A stretch of DNA of 64,000 nucleotides from Urechis unicinctus (Eukaryota > Annelida > Polychaeta > Xenopneusta > Urechidae), in assembly GCA_034190875.2 (NCBI GenBank), contig CM067344.1:14308801-14372800 (forward strand), given 5' to 3'. Positions 1 to 64,000 of this stretch are shown here, one piece after another. Position 1 is the stretch's first letter. Every line of letters starts with the position of its first letter. Position numbers and translations under genes: made by a program. The notes beneath the pieces were generated by a model. It did no database searches and was not told the origin of the DNA. It worked only from the letters and a program-made list of their open reading frames with translations.

Positions 1-80
1 CAAAACAACAGTTACCGCTTCTCGCAATATCCGGCCAAGTCGGATGGGAATGCTTGGAGTGAGTAATACTGTTCAATATC

Positions 81-190
81 TTTGCGCTGCAAATTTACGA
101 CACAATCACGGACCCATAGACCAGCTAACAGATGATCTGTGTAGGAAAAGCCTATTACTGACATGATCAGCAAAAAGCTCAAGTCAAACA
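81..190. repeat. Core element K in a1
   Basis: K is the best-conserved short element shared by all three module types. It starts near TTTGCGCTGCAAATT, then has GGACCCATCGACC, GCTAACAGATGATC and CAGCAAAAAG at similar spacing over about 100 bp. In all types it is followed within 100 bp by TTAGGGAYAGCTA. On the minus strand the a and c copies read as an open frame with a DHLLAGRWV-like stretch, but the b copies have stops just before that stretch, so the conservation is not clearly of a protein. Confidence 0.7.
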
Positions 191-775
191 GGCAGAGATC
201 GACCACAGGCGGAGATGTATGGTTTCATGTTAGGGATAGCTAGTGATGCGTGCATGATGGTCATCTCAGGAGCTGTGTACCGGCCTTAGTGTTGTGCCTT
301 ACCAGTCCGGCGATCTGTTGGCTGATAAGGTTGGATTAAGTCAGTTAAAGCTCATATGCATCTGGTTGTCGACAGGGCACTTAATGATCTCGAAGCGACT
401 AGGAAAGGGCAGCAAGCAGCTATATTTCGATTATCTGGTGGTTACAACGTTACCATAGTGTGAGTGCCTATCTTCAAATACGATGGTCGCTGGTCATATT
501 GAACACTTATTTAAAATAATGTTCACGATATGCACATTCGGCTGACTAAGTAACATGCATTTGTCAAGCCATCGAATCATATATTTTGATTAGATTCATT
601 ATAAAACTCTATAACATAGTCTGGCAGTCTGTGACGCGTGGCGAAGAATGTTGCATATCTTCTCTTAATTACCACCACTTTCTGATTTTCTTTCTTTGTT
701 AAAACAGAATAGCACCACTAAATTCTTTTATTGTGTGTAAACGGCTAGACAATGAAAACTAGGCAGTAATGGAGC

Positions 776-857
776 TCTGAGACATGACAGGCTATCAGGG
801 ACGTTCTAGACTCACATCTGAGACATGACAGGCTGGCAGGGACGTACCAGACTCACA
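776..857. repeat. 41 bp tandem duplication (two copies)
   Basis: Bases 776-816 and 817-857 are near-identical direct copies that both begin TCTGAGACATGACAGGCT and end GACTCACA. The related site in c1 (14,870-14,945) has TTCTAGACTCATACCC once only, so the duplication is specific to a1. Confidence 0.8.
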
Positions 858-1008
858 GCGAACACACCAAAGTAGTTTCTCGTTTAAATGGGATGCGTTT
901 TTGAACCTATCAATAAATAAACACCCCACAGTTGTGGCATAATGAAGTGTCTGATTGACGGGAGCGATTTTTAAATCTTTAATCTCGAAGTGATATCGAC
1001 GTCTTAAG

Positions 1009-1490
1009 CCACAGTCACACCGGATAGTAGGATTTCTGGATCGTGCGATTGTTGACAATTTGGCCAAGGTACGACTAATCGTCAATGATTGCTACGTTTG
1101 CGATATTGGTGGCAGATAATCTTACGATTTTTGTGGTGCGATTGGAGAAGATCGATCGAATGTTCAATCGTAGGTGACTTGTGGTGGCATCAGCGACCGA
1201 TCGCACGATCAATCGTGGCGATCTGTGACCGCTCGCACGTTCGATCGCAGCCAATCGTCTTCTCGGCAGCGCTGGTACACCCGCCATAATGAAATGCTGT
1301 CATCGTGTTTCGTAGTGGAGAGAAACCTGAACCTCAGAAGCCACTCCACATCAACTGGTCTGTGAACTACAGACTGGTGGTACCACCAATCGTAAGGTCG
1401 TGCAACCAGTCGGTACAGGTCGTGACTGGTCGCATGACCAATCGTAAGGTCGTGCATTATGCAACCGCGGTGATGGTGCAAACGCAATGA
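1009..1490. mobile_element. GC-richer CGATCG/AATCGT motif island, possible MITE
   Basis: This block is richer in CG than its surroundings and packed with short variants of AATCGT, ACGATT and CGATCG. The 20 bp ACCAATCGTAAGGTCGTGCA occurs twice, at about 1,385 and 1,435. One edge reads CCACAGTCACACCG, and the far edge read in reverse gives CACCATCACCG, a weak terminal inverted repeat. The frames of 60-96 codons here are by-products of the repetitive composition. No transposase is present. It might instead be a minisatellite, and the ends are approximate. Confidence 0.35.
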
Positions 1491-2064
1491 CAATTAACTG
1501 ATCCAACATTATAGGTTCGTATTAGTCGGGAAAAGAATAGTTGCGAACTGCCTAACTGTTAACATCCAGCTGATGGAACCTGAACCTGACAATATCATGT
1601 TGCGCTTTTATTGACGCATACATCTCTATTGTATGGTCTAAATCGTGTTATTAGCTCTCTGGCTTGTGGGAAGTCTTGTCTGATTTAACTACGACTCGTG
1701 CACCACAAGGCAATGAAACCTCGCCTCATATCATGCATGAGTTAAAATTAAAGTTTTTTAAAGTTGCCGTTTTAGTCGGCGGTGGCATCAGATCACCTAA
1801 ACCACCAAGCCGGGGTACCTGGCCTGATGTCCAAATAAATTTCCACAACATCAAAACGATGATTATGCAATGGAATACAAAATCATTGTATCGCGGTTAT
1901 CATTTTTATATATGTTTTACTATCGTTAACTGACAAAACGAGATGGGGTTTCTTCTATTGCCTTTGTTGAATGAACAAGGAATTGACGTTTTGTAGACAG
2001 ATAATGCAATACTTTGTCAACAAATTTATCTTAATCATTTTCATAATAATTGTTGCAGCATGAA

Positions 2065-2132
2065 TCATTATTATTATTATCATCATGATCATTGTCATCA
2101 TGATCATGATCATGATCATGATCATCATCGTT

Positions 2133-2166
<34 letters not shown>

Positions 2167-2190
2167 CCATCTCTTCATTATCATCGCCAT
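2065..2190. repeat. (CAT)n/(ATGATC)n microsatellite
   Basis: Imperfect CAT and ATGATC repeats, with a pure (CAT)n run at 2,135-2,166. It occupies the position homologous to the CAT tracts of c2 (36,541) and c3 (63,686), upstream of the block ending near TCACTAATGGGAGCAG in c modules. Confidence 0.9.
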
Positions 2191-3136
2191 CACTATAAGC
2201 ACCATGGTAATCATCATCACGATTATTGATAACCAGAGCACTACCAATAATGATGATAACTGTCAATACTATTATATCACTAGTGGGAATAGCAACAACA
2301 ATGTCATGTTTTCCCTAGCACATTCCAGCATTCAAAGTACATTCTCCCTTCACTAAGTTCACCCATACCATTTGTTACCTGTTGTATGGTTTTACGCTGA
2401 TGGACAGTTTTCTGTTTAACTGAGCTGACAAAGAGCTTCACAGCTGTATGTTTAACAGCAATCGATTCCAGTTGTATGAAATAGCAAAGCTTATAACATT
2501 CCCTGTAATAACACCCACAATGCGTATTGTGCAATGTCTACAATTCATCTGGATGTTTGACCAGAAAGAATTGACTTGGTTACTTACAGCGCTCTTGTCA
2601 GAAGAGCAGCCCCAGGACATAACACAGAGTTAGCTTATAACAGCTGCAATATAGCAGTGACCTCAACCTTACGCTACCCCTTTTGAGCATCAGATAGAAC
2701 ACTTTGCTAGTGTTGTAAAGGCTTAACGCACAGACCAGGCCGATACGGGAAACCAAATGGAGAATTATCACCAATCAAATCAGAATAGAATAGTAAAGAG
2801 CAAGAACGAATCGAACCAAGCCGTTATTGGTATTATATCGACGTGTAGGAAGTGCGAAGCCCATGCTCACATGCGTTGCCAAATCTCACCAGTGACCAGT
2901 CATGCAAATGTATTATCCTGGCTTTATATGCAGTGACCAGCTTATGTCGTTCTGCGCTTTATGCTATAACAGGATTGCTGTATCATGGCTTTATCATGGA
3001 TTTGAAACACTATGACTGCTTACTTTTATTATTGGTTAAACTAAATCTCATTGCCGTGTTAACTGCTACGACCTGCTAGTTTTGCCCCGTCTCGATATGC
3101 TGTAGTCTGCATATTTCATCATGCACGTTGAATTAA

Positions 3137-3339: not shown

Positions 3340-4192
3340 TACACTTATATATGCATATATATTTATTATATTTTTATCAACATCATTATTATCATTATTA
3401 CACATTTATTGAGGACATTCTAAATGACACATTGGGAGAGCTTGATGGGAAATCCAATATTTATAACCCATTCTATTAAACCATAAGCAATATATTAATG
3501 AATATTATGACAATGAATGTTGATTGACCTTAAGTAGAATCAGCGGTATATCTTTATGTGGAACCAAGTATGGAGAGGTTGACAGTTCGACTACTGTATG
3601 TACGTGTAAGGTTGGATTGGTTGGATTGGTAGGGTCATGGTGGGAATAATGAGCCACAACCGGGTGCAATATCTGTAAGGAAAACAGCGGATGGATGACT
3701 GCTTTCCTGGATGACTTATGATGTTACAGTATAAATGTGGCCAGGCAATCCGTACAGAGCTAGAGCATTAGATCTCTAGTATTTGTCACTGGGTTCACCT
3801 GGCGTTCCTCGTGTGTGCAGTGTATAATAAGGGTATTTGTCATCGCCATTGTAATGATGCTTGAGAAAGTTGAGCGCCATCATTGTGGGGGTAACTGAGA
3901 GGATGATGAAGACAAATTAACACTTTTCCTTGCTTATTGCATTCTTCAGATAAGAAGGTGACAACTACACTTAATCACCCTTACCATCTCAGTAAGATGC
4001 GTAATGTTTGGTACTGCTTTTGCCATAATATTGTTTATGATATGATATGATTAACCAGTATCCATGGAGCAGTGCAAAGGCAGCACCCTTTCTTATCATC
4101 ATTTATCTGCTTGAACACTGACGTGAAGGTTGCTGAGATGGTGAAGGAGGCTGCTTGAATGCAAGCATATTTCCTTCCAAGCTATCTCTTAA

Positions 4193-4331
4193 AACATAAA
4201 TCAATATACGAGCATAAGTATGAGGCTGCACTTGATAAAAGGACACGCTGGTATAGGAACAATGTACAGTGTAAATGCTGTATATCAGGCCAAGACCTAC
4301 ATTGCGCTATCTCGCCGAGCACTTTATTACA
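4193..4331. repeat. Landmark P in a1
   Basis: P is a shared element of 100-140 bp. It has ACGAGCAT or a close variant, then GGACACGCTGGTAT or GAACACGCTGGTATCG about 40 bp later, then CCGAGCA a further 50-70 bp on. It occurs once per module in all eight modules where its site lies in the window. Between types only these blocks are conserved. Confidence 0.6.
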
Positions 4332-4809
4332 CCTTGAAAGTAGATCACATGCTAGCTGGGTAACAATATTATATTATGAAATAGATACCGATTAAACCTT
4401 CGCCATCTTCTTTCCCGTCAATACTCAAAAAAAAGCATGGCGGAGGAAACATTTGCAAATGGCTGAGTGATCAATGAACCTTACTCTGAAGATATCTGCA
4501 ACGTGAGGGGTTAAATGAAGCAAGCTTCGAAGAGTCGTCAAAAGCGTGAAGGGTTTGTTTCATGATGTGGTCGTACGAACTTTAGTAGTACTTTCTCATT
4601 TTTCCAGTCTTGTAGCAGAACCAGTTAATCTGTGTGAAGTAGCCAATGCATCGTCTGGGTATTATCCTGTATCTAATGACTTTCGAAACGCTGACATTTC
4701 ATTCTCTAAGTTATTCAATATGTATGAGAGGAATATTACAATTTGTTCCAGCAATCACACATTGGCTGTTTCGTAAATACATGCGCAATAAATGTTTGAT
4801 AAATGTTTT

Positions 4810-5711
<902 letters not shown>

Positions 5712-5932
5712 CAATCGTATATTTTCAGCGAATTGTGAAATCGGTAGTTTGTTGTATAACAGCTTGACACGAGTTATTGTGAGTCCGCGCCGGGCTTTGT
5801 TACTTAATTGATAGCACCTGGCAGTTCTAGCAAGCCTTGCTTAATCACGTCCACCTGTATTATTGACACGACGCAATCACAATAAGCCAGAAGGTATCAG
5901 GTTCTCTCAAATCACCAGGATCACAAAAGAGT

Positions 5933-6092
<160 letters not shown>

Positions 6093-6110
6093 GAATTGAG
6101 CTGTCGTCAG

Positions 6111-6215
6111 TTCGCCTCACAGGCGTCCACTGACATCACACCATACGTTTATGTATGGACCTCTTTGGCTTCAGCCGTATTCTAATTGAGCAACAATGAG
6201 ATAATGGTCGTTTGC
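6111..6215. repeat. Landmark T in a1
   Basis: T has GCCTCACAGGCGTCCACTG (or CTGGCTTC variants), then ACCATACRTTTATGTATGG, then TTTGGCTTCAGCC or TTTGGCTSTCAG, and near-end GAGCAACAATGAGAT in the a type. It closes the part of each module where similarity between types is visible. Related copies lie in b1, c1, a2 and b2. Confidence 0.6.
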
Positions 6216-6800
6216 AGATCAATTTGTCCGTATTTATGCCAATAGTTTGTAGAGTAATAAGAAAGAGGGAAGATAGCCTAGCAACTCGATCTTCTCAGCC
6301 CAATCCTCCCTTTCAAGCTGACATTACGTTTACGTGAGAAAAGTAGTTTTGTTTATATTGTAGGGTCCTTTCCTAATATTGTCAATAATTTTGCACCCTA
6401 TCACTCGTTTTACTGACCTTTCATATGAAATGAGTTATCATATATTGAACCCGCTAAACTTTACAATCAGATCAATTTTATCTCTTCATATTTACTCTTC
6501 TTTAGAAGGCTCCATATAAATAATTATAAATGCATGAACAGATGACACATCTGATTTATTCCTAAGTAGTTATCACTTACTACAAATTTTAGTAGCACCA
6601 GGTAATTCTACTAAGGTAGCCGGGGTTAAATGATATTGTGTAACATTAATTCAGTAGGTCTCTGAATCTGGGGCCCGCCAAAGATTTTGGGTTTTCAAGA
6701 TAGCTATTCTTAGAGCATTCATTCAAAATCAATAGCTAGAATAACTTTCTTTACACACTGGGAGTCAACTTGTGCGCACTGGACCAAGCTTGTTACTTTT

Positions 6801-6905
6801 CTCATTCTCTGTATTGACACACATAATAACTCCGGGTTCAAAGCTGACACCCTCACGTCCGCAAATGGCGGGTTATAACCTCCTCGAGTGGATTTTCCGA
6901 TATAC
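6801..6905. repeat. Landmark S (module start) in b1
   Basis: S begins TCTCTGTATTGACA, followed by CATAATAACTCCGGGTTC and GACACCCTCACGTCCGC. It precedes K by about 370-490 bp in b1, b2, b3 and a2, and I use it as the working module boundary. The GGTTCGAA stretch resembles a tRNA T-arm or Pol III B box, but no cloverleaf can be folded around it. Confidence 0.55.
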
Positions 6906-7259
6906 CAGCTAAGATGGAATGAGGAAAATATTCTTTATGTGACCTCGCTATCTATGTGAAATGTCAATTGAATGTGGCTTGAATTTTAAGGAGCTGCTTA
7001 CTTTGTCGGCATTTGTGAGTATGGAACCTCTACTAACGAGGGTGGCAATCGTATGAAAGAGGCACAAATTTTTAATCACCTTTGAACACAGTTATCGCAG
7101 AATAAACCAAGATTGACGAGATCGACAAATGTATTAGAATTGAAATCCAAAAAAAGCAAACAAAATCAGGAAGGGTATTGCCAATTGTACGCTAAATTGG
7201 CGATTTTCGGTTCCCTGTAATGGAAAAACAATTTGGTAGCTGGGATGAGTTCCATATAT

Positions 7260-7353
7260 TTGCGCTGCAAATTGACAATCTCATCACGGACCCATCGACC
7301 CGCTAACAGATGGTCCTGGTTCGAAACGCCTGCCTCTAATCAGCAAAAAGTCT
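7260..7353. repeat. Core element K in b1
   Basis: Carries TTGCGCTGCAAATT, the CCCATCGACCCGCTAACAG block and CAGCAAAAAG. It lies 480 bp after the S element, the same spacing as in a2. Confidence 0.7.
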
Positions 7354-8840
7354 AACAGGCCGAAATATTTCCATCTTGTTAGGGACAGCTAATAATGCTA
7401 GCCGATGAGAGTCATGGCCACTTCCGGTGCACTATGCCGATGTAAGGGTGTGACAGCAGACTGCTATCATTTGGTTAGTACCATATTACCATAGTGCAGA
7501 CTGCTATTATCTGCTTAGTGCAAAGTTATCATGGTGTGAAGGCCTATCTTCGCACTTGATGGTCATTGGAATGATGACGTACACGATCAAAATACTGATC
7601 GCAATGAGCGCATTAAGTTGAGTAAGCTATGTGCTTTTGCAAAACCACCAAATGATATATATAGTCAAATAAACAAACAATCTTACATAACATTACAAAC
7701 CATTTTCATCCTAGATCATACAAAGAATTTATCGTTTCAGAGCAGCCCATTTGGTCACCGTCTTTCTTGAGGTAGGACGTGGCCGCATTCATTCTCGGAA
7801 GATGAATCGTTTCAGAGCTGGGCCGGGGCAATTCTGACCTATGCGACGGGTCGACTTCGCAATATAACATTATTATACTTCTGTAAAATACCATATATTT
7901 AAAGTTTGCAAGGTAGCAGATCGTTTTGGCTTTTGGGGAATAGTTTGGTTTTCAATGAATTATAGTAACTCGATACTTTGTCTATAAAATGGCTGCATCA
8001 GCTATTGGAATTGCACTCAAAACAAGCGATGTCATCTAAAAATCAAAGTTTCAGTTTTGACCTATTTTAGGGGTTCGTATTTACCTTTTAACAACCACAT
8101 CTTGTTAATTTCGATGTCTTGCCTATAGCAGTGTTGGAAAAGAACTAGAATGTGTCCATGGTTGTCATTTTGCTATGGATAAATCATCGACTTTGGGTCT
8201 ACAATTTGTTTCGTACAGAAAATAGACAGCTTTACAATGCCATTACAATGCCATTCCATAGAACAGCGCAAATAAATTTATATGGAACTGAATTCAACAC
8301 AATGTTAGCGCGGAAGCCATTCGTCGCTTCGACGCCCATTCTCTTGCTTGCATTGTATTCCATTTTAACCACAGAGCAAAGCATAAATAAGAAACACACA
8401 CCGGGACCATTAAAGCTAAATGCTTTCAGTGGTATGGTGATGAGAGCAGTGTAATGGAAGTCTACCTTGAGTATCAACTTACTTTACCGCGTCCCTTTTT
8501 GGCAGCATCATCTGTTTTAGGGAAAGTCAAACATTAGTCGTGGCCCAGTAAATGTCTGCACAATCCTTCACTTGTTGTCTCCAGGACTGTAACTCAGCTG
8601 TTGTTGTCCTAGCATTACTCATTCAACGAAGACCATGAGAACGCAACACCAAACAAAACCGTGTATACTCACAGGGATTTGCATTGGCCTGCCGGCCGCT
8701 TTCTTCTAAATATACATAAACCCAAGGGGGACAACGATTTCGTCTAAACCATCTTTAGTCCCGTTTACCAGTCTGGCGAGCCACATAGGCATTGACCATA
8801 ACCATCCGCCCCGACATTTGCCACCGAAAACGCTATTTTA

Positions 8841-9011
8841 GCCGTTTAGCATTTTAACTGTACCCGGTAAACCATTGATCGTCTGAAAGAAGTCGCGAGC
8901 TCTGATTGGACAATCTAATTAAGAGCTCCAATCAGAATTCGCGATTTTTTTCGCCCCGGACGAAGGGCTGATAATCAATGAACTTCCAGGTACAGGAAAC
9001 TTGCTAATCCG
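8841..9011. repeat. Long imperfect palindrome (possible foldback element)
   Basis: Left arm 8,841-8,910 and right arm 8,927-9,011 are reverse complements with mismatches. The inner 18 bp (8,893-8,910 and 8,927-8,944) differ at two positions around CTCTGATTGGA and TCCAATCAGA, with a 16 bp loop. Outer parts pair through TTAGCA, CTGTACC and CATTGAT. It lies inside a ~430 bp insert (about 8,620-9,055) that b2 and b3 lack. This fits a small foldback transposon or MITE. No transposase is present. Confidence 0.6.
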
Positions 9012-9473
9012 TTTGAACCCTTTTGTGTTGCAAATTAAAGCAATTGATCCAACGGTACAGATAAGTGACTGATAGATGGACGGGAATATCGATTAAAATT
9101 ACCATTTTCGTTATGATTGGGACGTCTAACGTCGTCAATATTCCGTTAATGGATCATGTTCGCACAATAATTGTGGGGCATTCATCATATATCATAAGTG
9201 GTGAAGGTACTTTCACGCGGACAATTTACTGATATGATACAAAAGGGTCCGTTTTGCTGGAATAAGAATAGCAGTGAGCCGTTCAACTCTTATTATTCAC
9301 AGAAAGGACTTGAACACCGACAAGTGTTAAGTTTAACTGTTAGGATTCTGAGCTATCAACTTTTAGCTACCAAAGCCGTTCACTGCTAGAATTCCGTTAC
9401 AAGATGACCCATCATTAACAAGCAACGGCGAAAAACGCAGCTGCCTATAGGATGCCATAACGTTATCGAGTAT

Positions 9474-9587
9474 AACATAAATCTAGATACCAGCATTAAC
9501 ATAATGATCCTCTCGTGAAAGGGACACGCTGATATCGGTATAATAGCCTGCTTTTTCAGGCATATCAAGCCGAGCAACATATTGTAA
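9474..9587. repeat. Landmark P in b1
   Basis: Has AGCATTAACATAATG, GGACACGCTGATATCGG and CCGAGCAACAT in order. Confidence 0.6.
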
Positions 9588-9710
9588 CGATTCAGGTAGA
9601 CCTCATGGTTAACGTAATAGGTCACTCTAATGGCATCAATGTCCAATGCGCATTGCACACTGCAGCATAAATGGACATAGTCTGTTTAGATCGATAGCAC
9701 ATCCCACAAT

Positions 9711-9913
<203 letters not shown>

Positions 9914-10860
9914 TGTTGTATTTTCATTTTACTTTAAGAGTTCATCTAATTATGCAGTCTTTTCGTACTGAGCAGAATGTGTTTCCATGGATTTGAATTC
10001 TTAAGGCGACAGCCAATTTCTGAACGGCACATAGTAGCATTCAGACGAAAATCACGCAGCAAAGCAGCTAGCATCAGTAATTCGTTTGCTGCCTCCCCGC
10101 CAACCGCAGACCACAGACGCCGCCGACTTGATTTACGAAAACTTGATCTTCAAAAGCATTCATTGGCACATTATTTTAAATTTACAACCCAACCACAATT
10201 TGACCGTTTCAATTTGAAGTCCATATTGTCGAAAGTGGTTGCATGAAGAGCACCCAGAGACAAGCACTATCATATCGTATGTGACTCATGTGGCTCCATG
10301 GCCTATTATTCATTGCAAATCAAAGCCGTGTGTTGTTGAATCGGCCCCGCAGCCTCCATGCTATATTGATTGCATAATTTCTAAAGAAGGGAATCTATGT
10401 TATAATATTGATAACTTTTCCAGCGCCGTCGTATAAATGGGACTTAACCCAAATCAGCCATGTACTGGTAGGTCGAAAGCCTACGGAATCGATACAACGT
10501 AGAGTGAATGATGGTTATTCGCAAATGAACACAATAGCTGAAAGAATGAATGCTGGTCATACTTTGACAAAAGAAAACATTATTACGGTTTGGAAAGATA
10601 ACAAGGAATCTCATGGAAATGTTGCAAATTTTTCTTTTAGGAATCTCTGAGGAATCTCTCATGTCAAAATGACATTTCAATTTTGAAAAGGTCATCTAAA
10701 GACTAATGCAGGTCAATTTGAGGAAACTCCCATGCGATTTCGCATGTATTCGCTGAGTCACTTAGTGTTATTAAAAGAGAAAATATGTACCATCTTGTTT
10801 CATGAAATAGGATCCACAAATCTGACTTTCCATTGGTCGGCACTACTGAGCTGCGGCGCT

Positions 10861-28098: not shown

Positions 28099-28164
<66 letters not shown>

Positions 28165-40650: not shown

Positions 40651-40714
40651 TTCAATATCCGATTACGTTCTATTTGATCTCAGATTTAGGACAACGACTG
40701 GCTAAATAATTAGA

Positions 40715-51082: not shown

Positions 51083-54000
51083 GCATGTAATGAAATAACT
51101 TGTGCATTGCTAATTAATGCCTCTTCCCAAAATATAATGGGTGATTAATAATCTGTTGCCACATTGAGTCAGTCAAGATGATAAATGGCCTTAATGCACC
51201 GATTCTGTTGGTGCCTTAAGTTCAGATAGGGATTGTATCTCTTGTGTTTGAAAGGCATTGCTACCACACTTATTCACGCAACTCATTACTCATTCACATA
51301 ACCTGTACGCACTATTGTTTTTACCCAGACAAAAGTCCTTCCACACAGCACAAATACATATTTTTATTTGTTAGGTATCTTTTAAAAACGTTATGAATTT
51401 CATATGGAAGCTTTCGTCTATGCTTCATGAAGTGTTTCTAAAAACAAAGATCATCATGTTATTGTTTAAGAGAACAGTAGACAAATGATACAGATCATGT
51501 TTCTATATGTTTTGTCGCGGATCCGTGGAACTGAAGAATGGTATTGATGAAGTGATATGGTTGGAAGCTCAGCGCAAAACTCAATTTTGCCGATGCACGA
51601 AAGAATAGAATAGAATATTGATTTCATCCTTCCATTTTCAGATGCTTGCGTTATTAATTCAACATTACATTACTGGAACTTGACAATAACATACTTGGTC
51701 AGCTTCTCCATGCAGGCTGAACAACAACAGCATCCACAACCGTAGGTTAGTCACACAAAGCTTGATAGGCGTTACCGTTTTATTCATAGGAGGAGTGCAT
51801 GAATGTTTAATCTTATAGACTTTCCCTCTGCTTATGCTTATTACAGCAATTCCTTTTGGATCCCGATCTCCGGAATATACACCTGTACGTCACAGCCATG
51901 TAATGAGTCACCCGTTAGTCTGCAAAAAAGTCTTCTGTCCGGTGTAAAATACCAATAACCAATGCAGGTAGGCTTTACTTATGCAGTACTTAGATTGCTA
52001 CTTACGATTTACACAATTTACATTCATCCAATCATCTGCGTCCATTTGCTAACTAATATTGTTGGGTTTAGAGTAGGATACGACTGACAGTTTGCCTAGC
52101 GGTTTCATCAGTGGCGGTGTTTGACGCAAAGAGAAATAGGCACACAAGGTGAATTATTGATGAGCAATAAAACCAAAACAACAGGCATCCTTAAGCAGTA
52201 ATGACCAAAGCCATTTTTTTTTAGTTAATGCGTCTTTTATGGTGAAATGCAGCACTTCATGTACTTTGATAAGACACCGACATAACATTCGCCACGGGCC
52301 TGTTGCATATGGATTTCCACCCATTAAGGTATCGTGCGATGGCAATGGCTAGTTTATCTCCGTCATACGTCATACATAAGTAATACAATTGTACAGCTAA
52401 ATGGCGATTGTGGGGTTGTTGTTCCTATAGGAGTGGCATTCACGTTTATGATATTGTGTAATGGGATTTGTTTCGACTGGGGAACGATGTACTGAGGAAA
52501 TATTCAACGAGGGCTTCATAAAATTGGTTTTATTACAGGTCTGAATAGAAATCACCGTAGATAATGACCAATACAGCTGTGTCTTAGGAGCTTGACTCTA
52601 GGCGACAACGAACGGAATTGCATGGCAGCCTTAAAGGGGATGGGATAAGGTCTTTGGGTACAGAACCTCCTTGTTGCAGACACAGATTGACGGTAGCTAC
52701 TTGTTCATTAACCCCAACAAGGGTTTGAAGTGATCGGGAGGTTTTCCATGTCAGTAATTAGGTCCTTACAATTGCTTGCAGTGCTGATTATATGTGCTGT
52801 CATAGTCAATGCTAGAGGCTAGCCATTTACATAATTGTGTGGCTGTATTTTTAACACTTGAGTAACATTATGTCGTTAGTAGCAGGTCTGGTCCTCACCA
52901 CAATGCTGGCAATCAATATTGCAATGGAAACAATGTTGTGCGAGGACTATTCCAATCATTATTGAGTACTCCAACGTTAGCCAGTTAATCGATTTACAGT
53001 AAATACGGGAAGTGCAGGGATGGAATTATTCATATAGAGCAACCACGGCCACCATTTAGACATTTTTGACTCATACCGATGATTGTCTCTGTCCGTGCCA
53101 TTCGGTCGTCGTCACGGCACACTTACCAACCACACAGCACATAGCAAAGTAGATTATAAAAAAACAAGCAAATGGGACTCCAATAGAATAAAGTGGCAGT
53201 TGCTTAGATAGCGCAAAAGCCAGGCGTTTATATATAGCAAAGATTAGTATTGGCTCGAGGAGAAAAGCAAAATTAATAAAACTTCGAAAAAAATGCAACC
53301 AAAATGAAGTCGTCTTCATTTGCACTGCATCGCAACTATACTTAGCAATCAATCATATCCCAGCACCGAGCAAGATCATGTAAAAAGAAACAAACGCACC
53401 TCAAGGGCGTTTTGAGCAGCTGACCAGTCGGCCCACCTTTGAAGTAATACATAGCATGGCATACATGTATATGGGAACAACGGCTAGAGCCATTGAGGAA
53501 GCAGGGAAAGGGGTCTCGACAGGCTTCTATAAGAATGTTAAAAAGACGTACACATAGTATCATCTGATATCCTGTTGTGACATGCCCTAGCACAAGGTGA
53601 ACTTATGGAATATTAAATTGCTGTAATTAAATGATGTAATAGCATGATCCTTTGGTACTGATTTCATAATGCTGTTTTTATGCGTCATGTGTTGACGATA
53701 TTTATTCCGGTCAAGCCGTAACAAGAAGGTTAATTTTATAACGCCTGGACTGCTCTTTGAGGTTTGATGGTCTACGTGCGCCTCCGTGATGTTTTGTAAT
53801 TGGGAATGTCTATAGGCGAAGAAGGCTGAGGTACAAATGCTTAAAATAAGGATGTGCTCTAGGGGAACTACTTTTAAAGCTGCCATGGATTCTCTCAACA
53901 TAATCTGGATTCGGCTTGTGTGATTCTCTATAATACACAGTCAAACCAATATGGAAGAGGAGAAACGTGTCATATGCGTTTCGTTTGCATTAGCGAATCA

Positions 54001-54344
54001 GGGGTTATTGAAAATAATAAAGTGGACTTCAATTGACATGAGAGAATTGCAGTTTAATATGCCACTTAGTACAGTAATGTTATAGAGATAGTGAAAATAA
54101 TGTTATCGATTCTAGAGACCAAAACGTTTTGGGATGATGTCTCAGTTCTTTTGACCGTTCGTATGACGAGGATGTGAACAATATAACCTTTATTACGGTG
54201 CTGAAGTATACGAACAATTTATAGTTTGAGCGTTTATTACCTAGTATCAGTGTCATATTCTGTCATGCTGGTGACAATCTTAGACAACATTCGTCATTCA
54301 CTGCCTACATCGGGTGTTATTTGACCATTATTGTACGGCGTTGT

Positions 54345-54430
54345 GTAAACATCGATGTATGATAACTGGCGGGATATTCCTCGTCATGTTTCAAGTGTTT
54401 TTCAACACAGGCTGTTATCTCGAGAAGAAT
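54345..54430. repeat. Second diverged module-c fragment
   Basis: Matches 19,480-19,565 of c1 through GGGATATTCCTC, TCATRYTTCA and GCTGTTATCTCG at similar spacing. It lies 7.3 kb after the 47,040 fragment, whereas the corresponding sites in c1 are 1.45 kb apart, so this stretch has been expanded by insertions or rearranged. Confidence 0.45.
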
Positions 54431-55843
54431 ATAATCTCGGCTGCAAATTACCAGGAAGTCGTAAAGTATTCAGCTGCCGATGTCACGTTAATCATGGCCT
54501 CAGAGGGTAGTTCACAGAGGGCGTGCTTCAATCCAATTAGTCGCTTCCCCAGATACATCTTCAGTTAATGCATATTTCATTCCCTGAGTATTTAAAGTAT
54601 TCCCGACGGATTGGTGCCGCTAAATGTTTATGATGACATGCCATGTTAACTTTGTAGGTAATATATTCTTGAAAAATATCTACCGAAGGCGCCTTAATAT
54701 TCTGGTGGATGAACGTGACCAAAACAGATAAAGAAACATTCCCATTAAGCTTTCCAGACTTCGCCCATATTAACTTTATTGTCGACTTTTTTGGACTTGG
54801 AGTGGATGACCTAGTGGGTTCCTCACGCATATATCATGTTCTATATATTTTTTCGAATCCACACATGTATCAAATCAGTGACTCTTATGTTACAAACTGA
54901 ATGGATTAGAAAAGCTGATATTGCAGAGGTGTAGTAAGCACAAGGACTAGATAAAATGCTGCATTCCGAACACATTCAACATTCCAACCTGTTATATAAT
55001 ATATAAAATTACTTTTCAATTGATAAAACATAAAGGCACCAATTGCTACTGTGTGTGTGTGGTTGGGGAGGGGTGGGGGTGCATTATTAGGAGATGATAA
55101 GGCCGGCGGCAGCATAACCAACGCCAGTCCGTCCTGCAGATCCAATTATCTAACAATGAACATCTCAACCTTGCTCAAGCATCACCGTGGTCACAACTTA
55201 TATATATACTATAACCTTGAGGATGGTCATGGTCAGTGGGTCAATGTCAAAGAAAACGCTGATTAGTTCTAATTATCGTTACGTGGAACCATGCAAGGAG
55301 AGGTCGACAGTTTCGACTACTGTGTGTGTAAGGTTGGATTGGTTGAGTCATGGTTGGGAGTAATGAGCCACATCCGGGTGTCCTGCTTGCGTTAACTGTA
55401 AGGAAAACAGCGGATGAATGTCCGCTTTACTGGATGACTGCCTGTTGCATGTTATTCATGTTACTGTACAAAGGTGTCCAGGCAATCCGTAAAAGGCTAG
55501 AGCATTAGATCTCTGGTATTTGTCAGAGGGTTCACCTGGCGTTCCTCGTGTCAGCAGTGTATGATAAGGGTATTTGTCATCGCCATTGTAATGATGCTTG
55601 AGAAAGGTGAGCGTCATCGTTGTAGGAAAATGAGAGGATGACAAAGACAAATTAACGCTTTTGCTTGTTTGTGATATTAATCAGTTATCTACGATGAACC
55701 AGTATCATGGAGCAGGGTAAAGGCGGCCCCCTTACTGGCTATCTCATTATTATTGATCTGCTTTAACACTGACGTGATGGCTGCTGTGATGATGAAGGAG
55801 GCTGTTTGTATGCAAACATGTTTCCTTCCAAGCTATCTCTTAC

Positions 55844-55983
55844 AACATAAATCTAGTTACGAGCATAAATGTGAGGCTGCACTTGGTACAAGAACACGCT
55901 GGAATAGACCCAATGTACGGTGTTAATCAGATATATAATGCTTAGACATACCTCGCGCTATCTCGCCGAGCACTTTATTACAC
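55844..55983. repeat. Landmark P in a3
   Basis: Close copy of the a1 and a2 element, with GAACACGCTGGAATAG. Confidence 0.62.
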
Positions 55984-57026
55984 CATGAAAGTAGATCACA
56001 AGCTAGCTGGATAAGATTACGCGACATGTCTGGGTCCATTGCCATAACGCACCGCCACGTGGAAGTTTGCTTACTTCTTTTACTTTGTGTTGTATTTTAC
56101 CACGGTTACACAGGCCCTGGCGTAACAATATTATGCTTATGAAATAGATACCGATTAAACCTTCGCCATCTTCTTTCCCATCAACACTTCAAAAACAAAG
56201 CATGGTGGAGGTAACATTTCCTAATGGCTGAGTGATCAATGAGCTTTACTGTGAAAATATATCTGCAACGTGAGGGGTATAGGTAGCCAGAGCATCGGAA
56301 AGTCGTCAAAAGCGTGACGATTTGCTTCATGTTGTGGTCGTACGGATGCTGATAGTTAATTCTATTTTTCCAGACTGGAAGCATAACCAGTTAATCTGTG
56401 TGAAGTGGCGCCATGCATCTTCTCTTTATCATACTATATCCAATGACTAAGTTATTCAATGTGTATGTTGATGAATATTCCAATTTGTTGGTGCAATCAC
56501 ACATTGGCTGTTTCATGAATGATTTGCGCAATAGTTATGTTAGATACATCAGAACAAACCATATCAAAGTGCTGAAACCAACCAAATCAGTGTCCGCAGT
56601 ATTCAAACTATAGGCGCGAAAACTCCTTTGACCATGGGTAATATTGAATGACAAGCAATTGCAACATGTTGGAATGTACAAATACTTTCTTTTGTTATTT
56701 CTAATCGCCATAATGACTAAGATATGATGCGGCAAGTGGCACTTTTATATAGTCGCACCAATAGCCTAAAGTAAACTTTGCTCATTGTTCGATGACTGTA
56801 CAGTTTTAAATTTTTCGGAGCTATTGCAGCACATTTAATAGTCCGTATGTCTAAGTTAATTTAACCGGGAGAGGTTGGGCGAGCAATATGCTAGCCTCAA
56901 ATATTTGTGTTATTCTTTTAACAACATTTATGCACATCCACTAAGAGGCTCCAATTTTCTTGTAACATGTAAATAAAAAAAGTGAATGTATCTGATACTT
57001 AAACATTTAGTGCTGTTAGGAGATAT

Positions 57027-57029
57027 TGC

Positions 57030-57117
<88 letters not shown>

Positions 57118-57147
57118 CATATATATGTATATACATATATATATATT

Positions 57148-57190
<43 letters not shown>

Positions 57191-57343
57191 TTATATAAAC
57201 ATATAAATATATTTATATATACATATTCATATATGTATATATATACATAAAATTTATGTATATAAGTATATATATATTTACACGTATATATATATAGTAT
57301 ATGCTTGGATGTACGTTTGGATGTATGTTTGTTTATATACATA

Positions 57344-57390
<47 letters not shown>

Positions 57391-57565
57391 ATATAGAGAG
57401 ATATATATAAATACATATATATATATATGTAAATATATATATGTTTATATATATTTATATATATATACATACATATACATATATATATATATACATATAT
57501 ATATTTTATATTTATCTATATATATATATCCCTATATATGTATATATATATATCTATATATATCT

Positions 57566-57610
<45 letters not shown>
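57027..57610. repeat. (TA)n-rich microsatellite of a3
   Basis: TA repeats with TATGTATA, ATACATAT and AGAGATAT variants, interrupted at 57,296-57,340 by GGATGTACGTTTGGATG. It forms the junction between modules a3 and b3. Confidence 0.95.
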
Positions 57611-57657
57611 CTTGACACACTGCAAGTCAACATGTACGCACTTGACCAGTGTTGCAT

Positions 57658-57750
57658 CTCATTCTCTGTATTAACATACATAATAACTCCCGGTTCGAAG
57701 CCGACACCCTCACGTCCGCAAATAGCGGGTTATTACTTTCTCGAGGGGAT
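57658..57750. repeat. Landmark S in b3
   Basis: Close copy of the b1 element with CCCGGTTCGAAGCCGACACC. It begins about 50 bp after the end of the a3 TA tract. Confidence 0.6.
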
Positions 57751-58118
57751 TTTCCGATGTACCAGCCAAGATGGAATGAGGAAACGATTCTTAATGTGAC
57801 CTCGCTATCTATGTAAAATGTCCATTGAATGTGGCTGGAATTTTAAGTAGCCCTTTGCTTTGTCGGCATTTGTGAGTATGGCCGCTCTACTAACGAGGGT
57901 GGCAATCGTAAGAAAGAGGCAGAAATTTGCAATCACCTTTGAACATAGAAGTTTAACACAGTTATCGCGGAATATAACATGACGAGATCGACAAATGTAT
58001 TAGAATTGAAATCCCAGAAAATCATGAAGGGGATTACCAATTGTATACTAAATTGGCGATTTGCGCTTCCCTGTAATTGAAAACAATATTTGGGTAGCTG
58101 GGATGAGTTCCATAACTT

Positions 58119-58218
58119 TGCGCTGCAAATTGACAATCTCATCACGGACCCATCGACCAGCTAACAGATGATCCGGGTTTGAAAAGCCTGCATCTGATCA
58201 GCTAAAAGTCTAACAGGC
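58119..58218. repeat. Core element K in b3
   Basis: Full-length copy close to the b1 copy, with a few substitutions. Confidence 0.7.
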
Positions 58219-59947
58219 CGAAATGTATCCATCTTGTAAGGGACAGCTAATAATGCTAGCTGATGAGAGTCATGGCCACTTCCGGTGCACTATGCCGATA
58301 TCAGGGTGTGACAGCAGACTGCTATTATCTGGTTAGTGCAATGTTACCATAGTGTTAAGGCCTATCTTCGCACTTGATGGACATTGAAATGATTACGTAC
58401 AATATCAAAATACTGATCACAATGAGCAAGCTATATGCATTTGCAGAACCACCAAATGATATATATTAATAAAATAAACAAACAATCTTATATAATATTA
58501 CAAACTATTTTCATCCTAGATCGATATAAAAAATTAATATGAAAACTTCCGCGCCCATATCCAATAAGACAAGCCCATTTGGTCACCGTCTGTCTAGAGG
58601 TAGGACGTGGCTGCATTCAATCTCAGAAGATGAATTCGTTCTTTGTGCAGCGCATAGCTGGGCTGGGGCAATTCTGACCTACGCGACCGGTGGAGCGAAT
58701 TCAGCAATATAACATTACTCTACTTCTGTAGAAATCCATATATAATGTTAAGTTCGCGAGGTAAAGTGAGAAATACATCATGGTTTTGTTCTTTTCCACA
58801 GGGGAATAGTTTGGTTTTCCGATGAATAATTAGTAACTGGATACTTCTGGTCTATAAAATGATTGCTCTCAGCTATTTGGAATTACATTCAAAACAAACG
58901 ATGTCCATCTAAAAATCAAAGTCTCCAGTTTTTGGCTATTTCTCAATCAATACCTCCTATTTTCAAGGGGTTCGTATTTGACTTATTACAACCACATGTT
59001 GTTAATTTCGATGTCAGGCCTATGACAGTGTTGGACAACTAGAATATGTCCATGGTTGTCATTTTGCCATAGATAAATCATCGACTTTGGGTTAACAATT
59101 TGTTTCGTACAGAAAACAAACAGCTTTAAATGACCCTTCCATGCCATTCCACAGAACAACGCAAATACATATAGATGGAACTGAATTCAACGCAATGTTA
59201 GCGCGGAAGCCATTCGTCGCTTCGACGCTCATTCCCTTGCTTGCACAGTGTTCCATTTTAACAACAGAGCAAAGCATAAATAGAAACAAACAGCAACCGA
59301 GACTATTAAAGCTAAATGCTTTCAGTGGTATGGGGATGAGAGCAGTGTAATGGAAGTCTAGCTTGAGTATCAACTTACTTTACTGCGTCCCTTTTTGGCG
59401 GCATCATCTGTTTTAGGGAAATGTCAAACATTAGTCTTGGCCCATCAGAGTTAATTTCTGCTATTTAGTGTTGACATTATGAGCTTAATTGCAGATAACA
59501 CGTTTGGTAGCCTTGCCAAACAGCTGAGTGACTGATAGATGGACGGAAGCATCGATTACAATTACCCAATTTCGTTATGATTTGGACGTCTGACATCGTT
59601 CATATTCCGATAATTGATCATGTACGCACAAAACTGTGGGACATTCATAATATATCATAAGTGGTGAAGGTGCTTTTATGTAGACATTTAACTGATATGA
59701 TGCAAAAGAGTCCGTTTTGTTGGGACAAGAATAGCAGTGTGCCGTCCAACTCTTACAATTCATACAATGAAGTTGAACATCGTTAAGTGATAAGTTCAAC
59801 TGTTCGGATTCTGAGCTATAAAGGTTTAGTTACCAAAGCCGCTCTAAGCCGTTTACTGCTAGAATTTTGTTAAAAGATGACCCATCATTAACAAGAAACG
59901 GCGAAAAACGTAGCTACATATAGGTTGCCATAACCGTTGTCGAGTAT

Positions 59948-60044
59948 AACATAAATCTAGATACGAGCGTAACTTTATGATCCTCTCATGAAAGGGACAC
60001 GCTGATATCGGTATGATACGTATATCAAACCGAGCAGTATATTG
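59948..60044. repeat. Landmark P in b3
   Basis: Close copy of the b1 and b2 element, shortened by about 14 bp after GATATCGGTATGATA. Confidence 0.62.
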
Positions 60045-62305
60045 TACCGATTCAGGTAGACCTCATGGTTAACGTAATAGGTCACTCTAATGGCATTAAT
60101 GTCCAATACGCATTGCACACTGCAGCATAAATGAACACAGTTGTCAAAACGCCACAGACTGAAAACAATAAAGACCCTTTCATTTACAAGCTGACGAGCC
60201 CTATAGATCGTTATAGAGTTAAGAGCTATCAGCATAAGCACATTTCATGTATCAATTATATATTTGCAAGTTTGAACATTAAAGGGCGTAAAAAATCTTT
60301 GATTGCTGTTGTATTTTCGAACGGCTAACATTTAAGATGCATTAACTGATCTGTCTACAATAAGTTCACTCACTTTGTTTCGTGGCTACAGACTCGTGGT
60401 TGAGTTTTATCGCATTTACCTGTTTTGAACAACCACTTACCTTTGTGTATAATTGTTTTCAGTTATTAAATCACGTCTATTTCTCTCATTACCAATCTGG
60501 CTAATCTTTAATAAACTTGAAAATTTCAATATTCATGCACTTAACGTTTTATCGCGGGTAGTTCCATTGAAGTGGCACGATATTGAATTATGTTGGTGTC
60601 CATCCACACACATAAACCAGATAAATTGCTTATTAGGAATGTTCTTGTCTGAGGCTCAGCGAAAATGGGAAAAAGACAACCAAAACTTTATTTGATGAAT
60701 ACACGTTTTGCAAGGGTTTCGGTTAGTCAATAACCCTCTTGCTCATATTGTTTGAATAATCATAATGATGTATGTTTCATTTCCATATTCAATGCAGCTC
60801 ACAACTAGTGCCGGTTATATATATATTCCATCCAGTAGATGACCCGTCTACGTACTGATGATTGGGAGATCGAATACATTCCGGTCTGCACCATAGGTCT
60901 ACACTGTGCATATTCATTAATGACGCATATTAATACATAAAAGACTTATCATTGGATTTGTCCAAGAGGACCAACATTAATTGCTGGAGCCCCAAGAGTT
61001 ACAATTTCGTCAGGGCGATGAAAATATACACTGTCATTTGAGATTTGTGGTGAGTTAATTTTCTTTCCTGTGAGATTGTATTCTACTCCCATATAACATT
61101 GGCAGCACAATGCTAAATATCTAGCACCATGTTTTATACTTGCATGAGTGTACACGATCCGTTGTAACAGATACATAAAAGAGATTTATTCTGTGAATAT
61201 ATAAGAGTAACATCAATTGATATAGATGGGTTTGTGTTTGGTCTTCTTCATTTGAAATTTCCATTTTTCCGAGAAGTTAAAAATAGTTGTTAAAAAGGCG
61301 ATTAATTGGGAGATCTTCGGTACTTGTATTAATCTTCCTAGCACCCTTAACTAACTGCTGTATTGTTTGATGCAGTCGATGGTCTACTCGAATAAATCAT
61401 ATCCTCTATTAATCTGCTAGAGAAGAGTCGGTCAATGTAATATCGATCATAAACGTGCAGCACACCATAGGCCTATTGGCTGTAAATACGATCAAGCTCT
61501 TCGAAGACAACGGGTGGGGAACTATCTAGGTTTTCATGCTCTCATAATTATGAGCTACGGGACTGTTCGGTCGCGAGTCGTTATCGATGACGTAATTATG
61601 AGCAGTGGATAATTACATGCTGTGATGATTATGGTTGGGAAAAATAGCGAGTCGTAGAGTCGATAGCGATGGCCACTTACTCAGACGGTGTTAGCGATAT
61701 CAACCATCAGCTATCATTAAATCACATCACCGTGTATCGTTGCGCGCCGGCTGCAAATCATTCCATGATAATGTATCGACCGGGTGTGCGTGGCTACTTC
61801 TGAAGTTTTAACAAATAGAATATGTCGATAGTTAGTGCAACCCTAATGAAGAATCATTCCCATTTGGATGTGGCTTTGGCAAATGCATTTCTTGTATGTT
61901 AGAGACTTCTGCTGCTGCAAGGGACAATAAATGGAAGGATTCGGAGCCAAATGTGCAAAACAACACAGCGTTCGTTTGTTTCGAGTTAATCAAGTTGAAT
62001 ACAGCAATTAGTGCACATCACCAACGTATGTGTCGTTTCATAGGAGGGGTCAAGCTTCTGTACACAAGCTTCAAAATCACGATTACAAATAATATTCTGG
62101 CTGGCTGAAAGTTAAAATGGACGTGAAAGATATCTGTTGCTATCAGAATATTCAATTTAATTTTGGAATGGTTTGGTTCGGTGCAACATTTTTCTGGTGG
62201 GTTGATTTTGCCGACTGAATGCAGAATAAACAATTGCTTCTGCGTCTGATGTCGAAGATCAGGCAAGGTAAGGATCAAGATTGTTAGTCTTCTCTTCCGC
62301 ATTAT

Positions 62306-62404
62306 TGTGCTGCAAATTTACAACACTATCCCAGACCCATCGACCCGCTAACAGATGATCCGGGTACGAAAAGCCTAATACTGACATGATGAGCAAAAAG
62401 CTCA
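62306..62404. repeat. Core element K in c3
   Basis: Full-length copy with the CCCATCGACCCGCTAACAG block, closer to the a and b consensus at its start than c1 is. Confidence 0.7.
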
Positions 62405-63685
62405 AGTCAATCAGGCAGAGATCGACCACAGGCGGAGACTTCATATTAGAGACTGCTAGTGAAGCGTGCTGAAAATACGCATGGCCATCACAGGAGCGGT
62501 GAGCCACACTTGGTGTTATGCCTCACCAGCCAGCCAATCTGTTGGCTACTGCAGTCAGTAATTGGCTATATTACAGCGTATGATAATAGACAGAGCACTT
62601 TGACATTTAAACCATTAGCCAGTGGTAGTCTCCCAAGCTATGCAATATTGCATTCTCTACTCGGTATCCAATATCTGAGCAAGCGGCACATAGATACAAA
62701 TACCCTCCATTGTTCTGTATGCGCATTTGTATAGCATACACTGTGACATTATTACGTGCATTATCAATGATTCAATGGCAAATGATACATTTATCCACAG
62801 GCGCATATGCCTGTCTTCAGAACTCCCCCGAGCGACAGAGACGAGACAGGCGAAACTGAACGTGCTCGTTGAATGAATGAATGTTTGTGCATTTATCCAG
62901 CTACCCTGGCCGTATTAGTCTCTAGGTGTCGGGGAAATACGCATTCAAAAATATTATATAAACAATGTTCATTGAAACAATGTGTTCATTTTCATGCCTG
63001 TGATTAACCTTGTTGTATTTGTTTTTGTTATATGTTCACCTTGCTCAAGTTACCATTTCCTCGTGAAGGACTTCGTTGAAATTAATATAAAACCTAAAAA
63101 TATTTTTCAGAAAGCCCTAGAGCAAGACAGGCTGCGTTAAATCGTTCTTTGGTACCGTCAGAGAAAACACTGTGCAACATGAAATCCAAGTGTTGCAATG
63201 CAACGCAGCACCACGAACATAAACTCACACGATTATTAATCTCGTTTAGAATCGATGGGTGTTGCTAAATAGTGTGCTGTGAGCCTATATTTGATTGTCC
63301 TTTAATATCCAATATATATAAAACAATCGAACCTCTTTTGGCATTTATTATTCTTTGCTTTATGTTTACATATGCCTATCACATTTATTTTTATAACTCT
63401 TACAATTAATGTACCACGAGCTGACTGGGTTATGAGCACCTTGTTGGATCTCACTGAACCTATAATTATGCGCAATATCGAAAGGTAATACAGCAGATTA
63501 CAACATCTTTATATCGCCACAATAGCTCATATCTACGATTGGCCATAACCAGTCAATTAGCAAGGTGGCACGGGGTCTTCTTATTTTTCATTCGTTTAGT
63601 AAAGAAGCAATCAACAAAGCTGAGTTTGTTTTGCGATAAAATTATGCTATTCATTTTTACTTTTAACTGTTACTACCACAAACTG

Positions 63686-63740
63686 ACATCATCATCATCA
63701 TCATCGTCATTTTCATAATCATCCTCTAGATCATGATCAT
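63686..63740. repeat. (CAT)n microsatellite of c3
   Basis: A CAT run, then TCATAATCATCCTC and GATCATGATCATT, at the site homologous to 36,541-36,603. Confidence 0.9.
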
Positions 63741-64000
63741 TTTCGACCTTGATACATATAAACATTGAAGATATGATTATATCACTAATGGGAGCGGTAA
63801 TGATAAAGTCAACATTAAAAGTGTACGCAACATTTTCCTGCGTTTGTTGATAACCTAGAGTAGGGTGTGCACATAGAAATGATACTCTGATCAACTGAGC
63901 TGGAATAGAGCTACACAACAGTAGGCGGAGTTTCATCTGATTCTGGGATATAAGATAACCTAAGCTATGCTATTGATCCAATACGCGACGTTTTATGGTG

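What the first reader, a model, noticed from the sequence alone, without database searches (positions are those of the whole stretch)
1..64000. Nested higher-order repeat: a-b-c modules of 4-12 kb, block-duplicated
Modules of one type match over kilobases between units about 23 and 28 kb apart, while a, b and c share only ordered short landmarks (S, K, P, T). This two-level divergence is how higher-order satellite arrays look, but the 'monomers' here are kilobases long and unrelated to known alphoid-type satellites. No recognisable gene explains why such an array is kept.
Basis: partly seen in the sequence, partly recalled or inferred. Interest (0 to 1): 0.75.

Follow-up and report, generated by a model that had tools for sequence, protein, structure and literature searches.

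The report
Diverged tandem array of kilobase modules
Nearly the whole window is one stretch of a large cluster in which a few blocks, thousands of bases long and without a recognised gene, have been copied side by side again and again at different times; it is a real and rather elaborate duplication cluster, but not a classical satellite.

Summary
The masked window holds 86 self-similar pairs in direct orientation (plus one palindrome); shuffles give none. Diagonals lie at 19-25, 26.5-30 and 47.5-52.5 kb. Trees of two landmarks split A from c with 100/100 support. 59,366 of 64,000 bases have another copy in the sequence examined. The array spans C3 14.27-14.43 Mb of a 1.19 Gb eukaryote genome; probes find further copies essentially only at C3 11.50-11.74 Mb. 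It is a cluster of tandem segmental duplications of several ages (length-weighted means 66-70% between types, 76-84% between copies of a type, 89-98% in young blocks), not a homogenised satellite. No coding gene, RNA family or protein domain was found, though power for short exons is low and Pfam covered only part. One ~50-base core (165-215, 12501-12551, 24908-24958, 62388-62438) is nearly identical across A and c and evolves slowly in both: the best lead to a function. TATA-like elements occur in A and c but are not specially conserved.

The parts
1..3100 (+). module A, copy 1 (begins about 2.8 kb left of the window); carries a dispersed repeat at about 1003-1453
   Evidence: 1-470 matches 24744-25244 at 83%, 2315-2663 matches 25247-25587 at 83%; matches on other chromosomes lie within query 1003-1453
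3380..9700 (+). module b, copy 1, with a long (AT)n tract at 4812-5711
   Evidence: matches to 26.1-31.8 kb and 55.3-60.1 kb; tandem repeat table
9900..21200 (+). module c, copy 1
   Evidence: colinear matches to 31.9-40.7 kb and 60.3-64.0 kb
21600..25710 (+). module A, copy 2
   Evidence: 96% copy at +95.6-99.9 kb, more diverged copies elsewhere in the array
26098..31830 (+). module b, copy 2; its segment 26098-28060, which lies between two AT tracts, is inverted in the copy at +100.4-102.4 kb
   Evidence: self-comparison of 244 kb, AT tracts 25715-26097 and 28103-28300
31900..40700 (+). module c, copy 2
   Evidence: 93% copy at +108.3-114.6 kb for 32938-39178
40700..55260 (+). block D: almost single-copy inside the window, but multi-copy in the array
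   Evidence: 40.2-50.5 kb has 91-95% copies at +114.6-124.9 kb; both probed parts have copies in the C3 11.5 Mb cluster, 76-95% for the long pieces of 40.7-46.9 kb and 80-100% for the long pieces of 50.5-55.3 kb
55268..60150 (+). module b, copy 3, with (TA)n at 57030-57609
60310..64000 (+). module c, copy 3, continues past the window end
10158..10480 (+). landmark L1 in c1; TATA-like TATAAATGGGACTTAACCCAAATCAGCC at 10432-10459
22480..22800 (+). landmark L1 in A2; TATA-like element at 22752-22779
31925..32171 (+). landmark L1 in c2 (shortened); TATA-like element at 32123-32150
165..215 (+). L5 core, A1
   Evidence: 0 mismatches to the core pattern
12501..12551 (+). L5 core, c1
   Evidence: 0 mismatches; the slowest 60-base windows of module c start at 12485-12495
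24908..24958 (+). L5 core, A2
   Evidence: 1 mismatch; slow in module A
62388..62438 (+). L5 core, c3
   Evidence: 1 mismatch
8245..8560 (.). slow-evolving block of module b (copies near 30743-31068 and 59126-59461)
   Evidence: holds the slowest windows of module b; a 4-base indel separates the window copy from the other five rows

Best explanation
The window is part of a cluster of tandem segmental duplications, found in this genome almost only at two places of one chromosome. SHOWN: modules of diverged types A, b and c share ordered landmarks; copies of each type recur in larger blocks; some blocks are much younger (89-98%), including a 5.9-kb c unit several times in a row and a roughly 30-kb block at a 74-kb offset. 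A second cluster about 2.6 Mb away carries the same modules in both orientations, with one stretch 96-99% identical to part of the first. INFERRED: the types descend from one ancestral module; the copies arose by unequal crossing-over or similar tandem duplication between repeats already present, with long (AT)n tracts as possible breakage points. Most of the sequence drifts; the array persists chiefly because duplication keeps renewing it, while a ~50-120 base core (L5) in A and c modules is held by selection as a non-coding element, most likely a regulatory site or part of a non-coding transcript.
For: Direct parallel diagonals against zero in shuffles. Several age levels. Trees by type. 59,366 of 64,000 window bases have a copy in the sequence examined. 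Matches of the L1, L5, b and D probes lie on C3 in or near the two clusters; the exceptions, from the 50.5-55.3 kb probe, are five pieces at C3 49.29 Mb (four on an (ATAC)n tract, one of 60 bases) and one 82-base piece at 76% on C9. Tandem 5.9-kb copies and an A/c fusion at about -22 kb. A 937-base unit carrying L1 repeated about ten times at C3 11.511-11.520 Mb, where the fetched stretch ends. Inverted b segment between AT tracts. L5 core: 0, 0, 1 and 1 mismatches in 49 specified bases in four window copies of two types, chance expectation 0.00; the three lowest of 701 windows in module c start at 12485-12495; in module A 2.7% of 789 windows are lower than the core region.
Against: Landmarks as a class do not evolve more slowly than the rest of module c (0.185 against 0.191, circular-shift p 0.43), so constraint rests on the L5 core and the b block 8245-8560 alone, and each is not the only slow part: over 12450-12590 as a whole 7.3% of c windows are lower, the very lowest A windows start at 24325-24330, and for the b block 8.3% are lower. 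Repeated gene conversion between types could mimic constraint. The core is damaged or missing in some modules (the c copy at 79 kb lacks it by deletion, the b copy at 76 kb is diverged; the pattern finds no intact core in c2). Breakpoints were not mapped base by base, and alignment ends at AT tracts are partly an effect of masking. No expression data, no relatives, no population data. Of the second cluster 50 kb and 15.7 kb were analysed.
Confidence: 0.65

Rival explanations
1. Cluster of real genes: each A and c module is a transcription unit with a TATA-type promoter (L1) and small exons, either a non-coding RNA or a short, fast-evolving protein, and the array is an ordinary expanding gene family.
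For: L1 holds a TATA-like box plus a shared stretch in the same orientation in A and c modules: of 12 plus-strand L1 copies in the 244 kb, 11 fit the strict pattern TATAAA...ACTTA and the twelfth reads ACTTTA there. An inverted L1-like copy lies upstream of a flanking open frame with a hydrophobic segment, single-copy at E<=0.01. L8 shows donor-like GTAAG in 5 of 8 rows. Module spacing of 6-12 kb is typical of gene clusters (general knowledge).
Against: Synonymous/non-synonymous scan over the window shows no excess (maximum z 4.14 against 4.06-5.16 in six nulls). No codon-phase bias in L1-L6 (p 0.42-0.60). No Pfam family above its cut-off in the frames scanned. Conservation along c shows no clear exon-like peaks. 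L1 is not slow within types (25-64% of windows are lower). A 4-base indel breaks the frame in the b block. But a simulation shows the scan would miss most exons of up to 60 codons.
Confidence: 0.25
2. Higher-order satellite array in the strict sense, maintained as heterochromatin or centromere.
For: Two-level divergence, direct tandem order in the window, clustering by type.
Against: 28 L1 and 31 L5 matches at two loci on one chromosome, 10-34% divergence between units, irregular order, long and unequal modules.
Confidence: 0.05
3. Transposon-derived tandem array.
For: A dispersed repeat sits at 1003-1453; a palindromic insert at 8816-9035.
Against: The other probes find copies almost only in the two clusters; no reverse transcriptase or transposase domain in the scanned frames.
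Confidence: 0.03
4. Assembly artefact (haplotype copies placed in tandem).
For: A 96-99% identical stretch occurs at 11.500-11.512 and about 14.404-14.415 Mb.
Against: Most copies differ by 10% or more, with different internal orders and an inversion.
Confidence: 0.04

Closest known systems
Clustered tandem segmental duplications, as around multi-copy gene clusters in animal genomes (recalled)
   Same: kilobase blocks copied locally at several times, block-in-block structure, fusion modules, inverted pieces, few loci
   Different: no coding gene recognised in the modules; older layers are far below the usual 90% identity threshold for segmental duplications
Macrosatellites such as DXZ4 or the 7.3-kb tRNA repeat at human 1q23.3 (PMC6985041 and PMC4041453, seen as search listing and start of abstract only; details of DXZ4 recalled)
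   Same: kilobase monomers, one or two chromosomal sites
   Different: known ones are near-identical head-to-tail copies of one monomer (recalled); here three diverged types and a fourth block. No enrichment of a CTCF-like core (4 found, 10.1 expected)
Alphoid-type higher-order repeats (recalled)
   Same: divergence between types exceeds divergence between units on average
   Different: monomers about 171 bases against 4-15 kb here; hundreds to thousands of homogenised copies against about 30

Membership tests
Higher-order satellite array | copies cluster by monomer type and not by unit | tested here: met
   L1 and L5 trees, 100/100 for A against c; b not included
Higher-order satellite array | higher-order units homogenised (usually over 95% identity) | tested here: not met
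   copies of a type in the window match at 66-90%; only some outside blocks reach 93-98%
Higher-order satellite array | regular periodic order of monomers | tested here: not met
   A-b-c, A-b-c-D, b-c, and c-c-c runs outside
Higher-order satellite array | centromeric or heterochromatic location | not testable with these tools
   position 11.5 and 14.3 Mb of a 77.6 Mb contig; centromere unknown
Macrosatellite | kilobase monomers at one or few loci | tested here: met
Macrosatellite | near-identical head-to-tail copies of a single monomer | tested here: not met
   three to four block types; only the 5.9-kb c copies at -30 to -2.8 kb and the 937-base copies fit
Tandem segmental duplication cluster | blocks of at least 1 kb at 90% identity or more, locally arranged | tested here: met
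   20.6-50.5 kb against +94.7-125 kb at 89-96% in nine pieces; older layers are below 90%
Protein-coding gene cluster | conserved open frames or known domains in each module | tested here: inconclusive
   no signal (Pfam), but power is low for short exons and Pfam covered only part of the frames
Structured non-coding RNA array | known RNA family or stable conserved fold | tested here: not met
   Rfam 0 matches at gathering score over the window; single-strand fold z between -1.04 and 0.24 in 8 folds; forward-strand alifold z -2.11 to 0.27 for six landmarks

The most novel reading that the evidence does not exclude
Most A and c modules carry a selected non-coding element (the L5 core, with the b block 8245-8560 as a second), so the array is a multi-copy regulatory or non-coding-RNA locus whose dosage is tuned by tandem duplication; it would be a macrosatellite-like locus of a new sequence family, with a diverged set of isoform modules in place of identical copies.
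Probability: 0.2. Interest if true: 0.6.

Novelty: new member of a known kind. Interest (0 to 1): 0.33.

Why it matters
It is a clear example of how a few blocks without a recognised gene can grow into perhaps 400 kb of nested duplications (about 164 kb mapped here, the second cluster read only in part) at two sites of one chromosome. If the conserved core is functional it would give a handle on why such arrays are kept.

Tried and rejected
Coding genes: six-frame ORF comparison (ORFs with a relative 402 on plus, 401 on minus), windowed synonymous scans, shared open frames, codon-phase tests (in one search 30 segments given, 29 with a result, 2 at p<=0.05, about what chance gives) and signal-peptide-like starts. 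The best shared frame (minus strand 15907-16056, 9 of 9 aligned copies open, indels of 3 and 6 bases) has many replacement changes and was judged chance; it is not excluded. Power is limited: with omega 0.3 and 40 codons 4% of simulated exons exceed z 4.3, with omega 0.15 and 60 codons 47%.

RNA: Rfam, folds, hairpin scan. The strongest hairpins (8881, 40801, 1351) occur in 1-2 copies. Moderate hairpins on the minus strand near L5 (12571, 62326) are in 18 and 22 rows, but the L5 fold is no better than shuffles (z -0.97). The reverse-strand alifold z-scores are invalid because the shuffle used forward column groups; I do not use them.

Promoter reading of L1: kept as a rival only, since L1 is not slow within types. 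Constraint on landmarks as a class: not supported. CTCF: fewer matches than expected (consensus recalled). One search, a bacterial promoter scan, says nothing for a eukaryote.

Papers: three searches; I saw only listings and abstract starts and read no paper. I make no claim that such arrays are absent from print.
Full report
WHERE IT IS. The window is C3:14308801-14372800 of an unnamed assembly of 1,190,315,542 bases in 926 contigs; C3 is 77,575,773 bases long. I fetched 80 kb to the left and 100 kb to the right, and 50 kb plus 15.7 kb of a second cluster. Coordinates with a sign are relative to the window start.

OBSERVATION. After masking simple repeats the window compared with itself gives 86 pairs, none inverted, apart from a 220-base palindrome; five first-order shuffles give none. 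Aligned bases pile up at offsets of 19-25, 26.5-30 and 47.5-52.5 kb. The layout is A1 (to about 3.1 kb), b1 (3.4-9.7), c1 (9.9-21.2), A2 (21.6-25.7), b2 (26.1-31.8), c2 (31.9-40.7), D (40.7-55.3), b3 (55.3-60.2), c3 (60.3 to beyond the end). Offsets shrink along each diagonal (22.7 to 19.6 kb for b and c of unit 1 against 2; 29.0 to 27.2 kb for unit 2 against 3), as insertions and deletions would make them. Identity between copies of one type is 66-90% (length-weighted means 84, 77 and 76% for A, b, c); between types only short ordered blocks align, 62-83% (means 66-70%). Blocks shared between types include: L1 (22480-22796 with 10158-10476), L2 (23121-23539 with 32547-32949; 23121-23303 with 6100-6289), L4 (24368-24942 with 6805-7366), L5 (24730-25252 with 12323-12858; 12410-12600 with 7250-7420), L6 (25262-25429 with 36676-36836), L7 (2721-2854 with 16073-16208) and L8 (3936-4326 with 37794-38182).

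TYPE AGAINST UNIT. Trees of L1 (27 rows: 6 A, 6 c, 15 from the second cluster) and L5 (16 rows: 5 A, 7 c, 4 from the second cluster) put A and c on opposite sides of a 100/100 branch. Labels were given from map position. The second-cluster rows fall into both groups, so the types are older than the split between clusters, unless copies were exchanged later.

EXTENT AND AGES. The array runs from about -38.4 to +125 kb. Left of the window lie four c copies of 5.9 kb, matching one another at 93-98% over long stretches, and a fusion of an A front with a c body at about -22 kb. Window 20.6-50.5 kb recurs at +94.7 to +125 kb at 89-96% in nine pieces, with the b segment 26098-28060 inverted there; that segment lies between (AT)n tracts at 25715-26097 and 28103-28300. 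In the second cluster, 11.500-11.512 Mb is 96-99% identical to about +94.8 to +106.4 kb, followed by about ten copies of a 937-base L1-bearing unit up to the end of the fetched stretch, while 11.690-11.720 Mb carries A-b-c in the opposite orientation, best matches 71-92%. Counting the parts of the clusters in hand, 59,366 of 64,000 window bases have another copy (matches of at least 66% over 120 bases); of the 4,634 others 3,003 are masked simple repeats.

CONFINEMENT. Genome-wide probes find L1 28 times, L5 31 times, the b block in 18 pieces, 40.7-46.9 kb in 21 pieces and 50.5-55.3 kb in 79 pieces. The first four probes match only at C3 11.50-11.74 and 14.27-14.43 Mb. The last also has short pieces on C3 up to 11.95 and 14.47 Mb, five pieces at C3 49.29 Mb (four of them on the (ATAC)n tract that one search lists at 51017-51086) and one 82-base piece at 76% on C9; many of its 79 rows are that (ATAC)n tract. 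The probe 1-3000 found 72 matches (40 of 114 candidates scored); those on other chromosomes, and those on C3 at 42.3 and 48.8 Mb, fall within query 1003-1453, a dispersed repeat. DNA search skips very common words, so these are not proofs of absence.

IS THERE A GENE. The synonymous/non-synonymous scan of the whole window has maximum z 4.14 and 120 windows above 3; six null shuffles give maxima 4.06-5.16 and 97-177. Codon-phase tests on 30 segments gave a value for 29, two at p<=0.05 (8244-8559 at 0.04 and 12400-12860 at 0.05); in the first the window copy differs from the other five rows by a 4-base indel. Pfam was scanned in six frames for 9900-18900 and 50500-55300 and on the plus strand only for 1-9900, 18900-26050 and 40600-50500; the rest was not scanned. 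Hits were ZIP transporter at E 1.4e-4 and 0.0034, both under the curated cut-off and lying on the (CA)n tract, and HmuY at E 0.081, under cut-off. Rfam gave nothing at gathering score. Conservation along c is without clear exon-like peaks. A simulation shows the main scan would miss most exons of up to 60 codons, so absence of coding is likely, not proven.

WHAT IS CONSERVED. Pattern search for the L5 core with 49 specified bases finds four window copies, two A and two c, with 0, 0, 1 and 1 mismatches; expectation 0.00. In module c the three lowest-divergence 60-base windows of 701 start at 12485, 12490 and 12495 (0.038; mean 0.117), and 7.3% of windows are lower than the mean of 12450-12590; in module A 2.7% of 789 windows are lower than the core region, the two lowest being elsewhere, at 24325-24330. 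The row numbers suggest that these stacks contain rows of the other type at L5, which works against finding low divergence. In module b the slowest part is 8245-8560, with 8.3% of windows below its mean. Against this: landmarks as a class are not slower within c (p 0.43), L1 with its TATA-like box is average, and some modules have lost or damaged the core. So the L5 core is the element for which selection, or repeated gene conversion, is most needed.

MECHANISM. Stepwise tandem duplication by unequal exchange among existing copies explains direct order, fusions, runs of near-identical c and several age levels. AT tracts as breakage points are inferred from the inverted segment and were not mapped. 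Persistence by renewal and drift with one selected non-coding core is my best reading (0.65); a cluster of unrecognised transcription units is the main rival (0.25).

NOVELTY AND INTEREST. A new member of a known kind. The nested structure is striking and correctly seen from raw sequence; the open point worth a test is the L5 core.

Noticed in passing
L010:4606-5391 (-), about 65 kb left of the window: An open frame of 262 aa matching ectoine synthase (PF06339, E 1.3e-27, two stretches), unusual in an animal-like genome; contamination or horizontal transfer not examined.
   Followed up: partly
L012:7203-7643 (-): Open frame with a hydrophobic segment, single match in the genome at E<=0.01, apparently an exon of a host gene running away from the array; an inverted L1-like element lies about 2 kb upstream of it.
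   Followed up: partly
window 8816-9035: A 220-base palindrome, possibly a small hairpin-type mobile element, in a stretch (8660-9053) with no copy in the array sequence examined.
   Followed up: no
window 776-857 and about -34.6 to -33.7 kb: A 41-base minisatellite: two copies in the window, about 23 copies left of it.
   Followed up: no
about +125 to +137.5 kb (L023-L024): A separate tandem array of about 2.65-kb units at 85-93% identity directly right of the module array, with internal 42-base repeats.
   Followed up: no
window 3936-4000 and 17434-17500 (landmark L8): Acceptor-like TTCAG and donor-like GTAAG about 37-42 bases apart in 5 of 8 rows, of two types; might be a small non-coding exon.
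   Followed up: partly
window 14975-15034 and 35756-35839 (-): Two homologous minus-strand frames among the higher synonymous scores (z 3.42 and 3.66), within the range of the nulls; the translation recalls a short reverse-transcriptase motif, by eye only.
   Followed up: no
about -71.6 to -69.4 kb (L009-L010): Reverse-transcriptase-like fragment of a non-LTR element, judged by eye from its translation.
   Followed up: no
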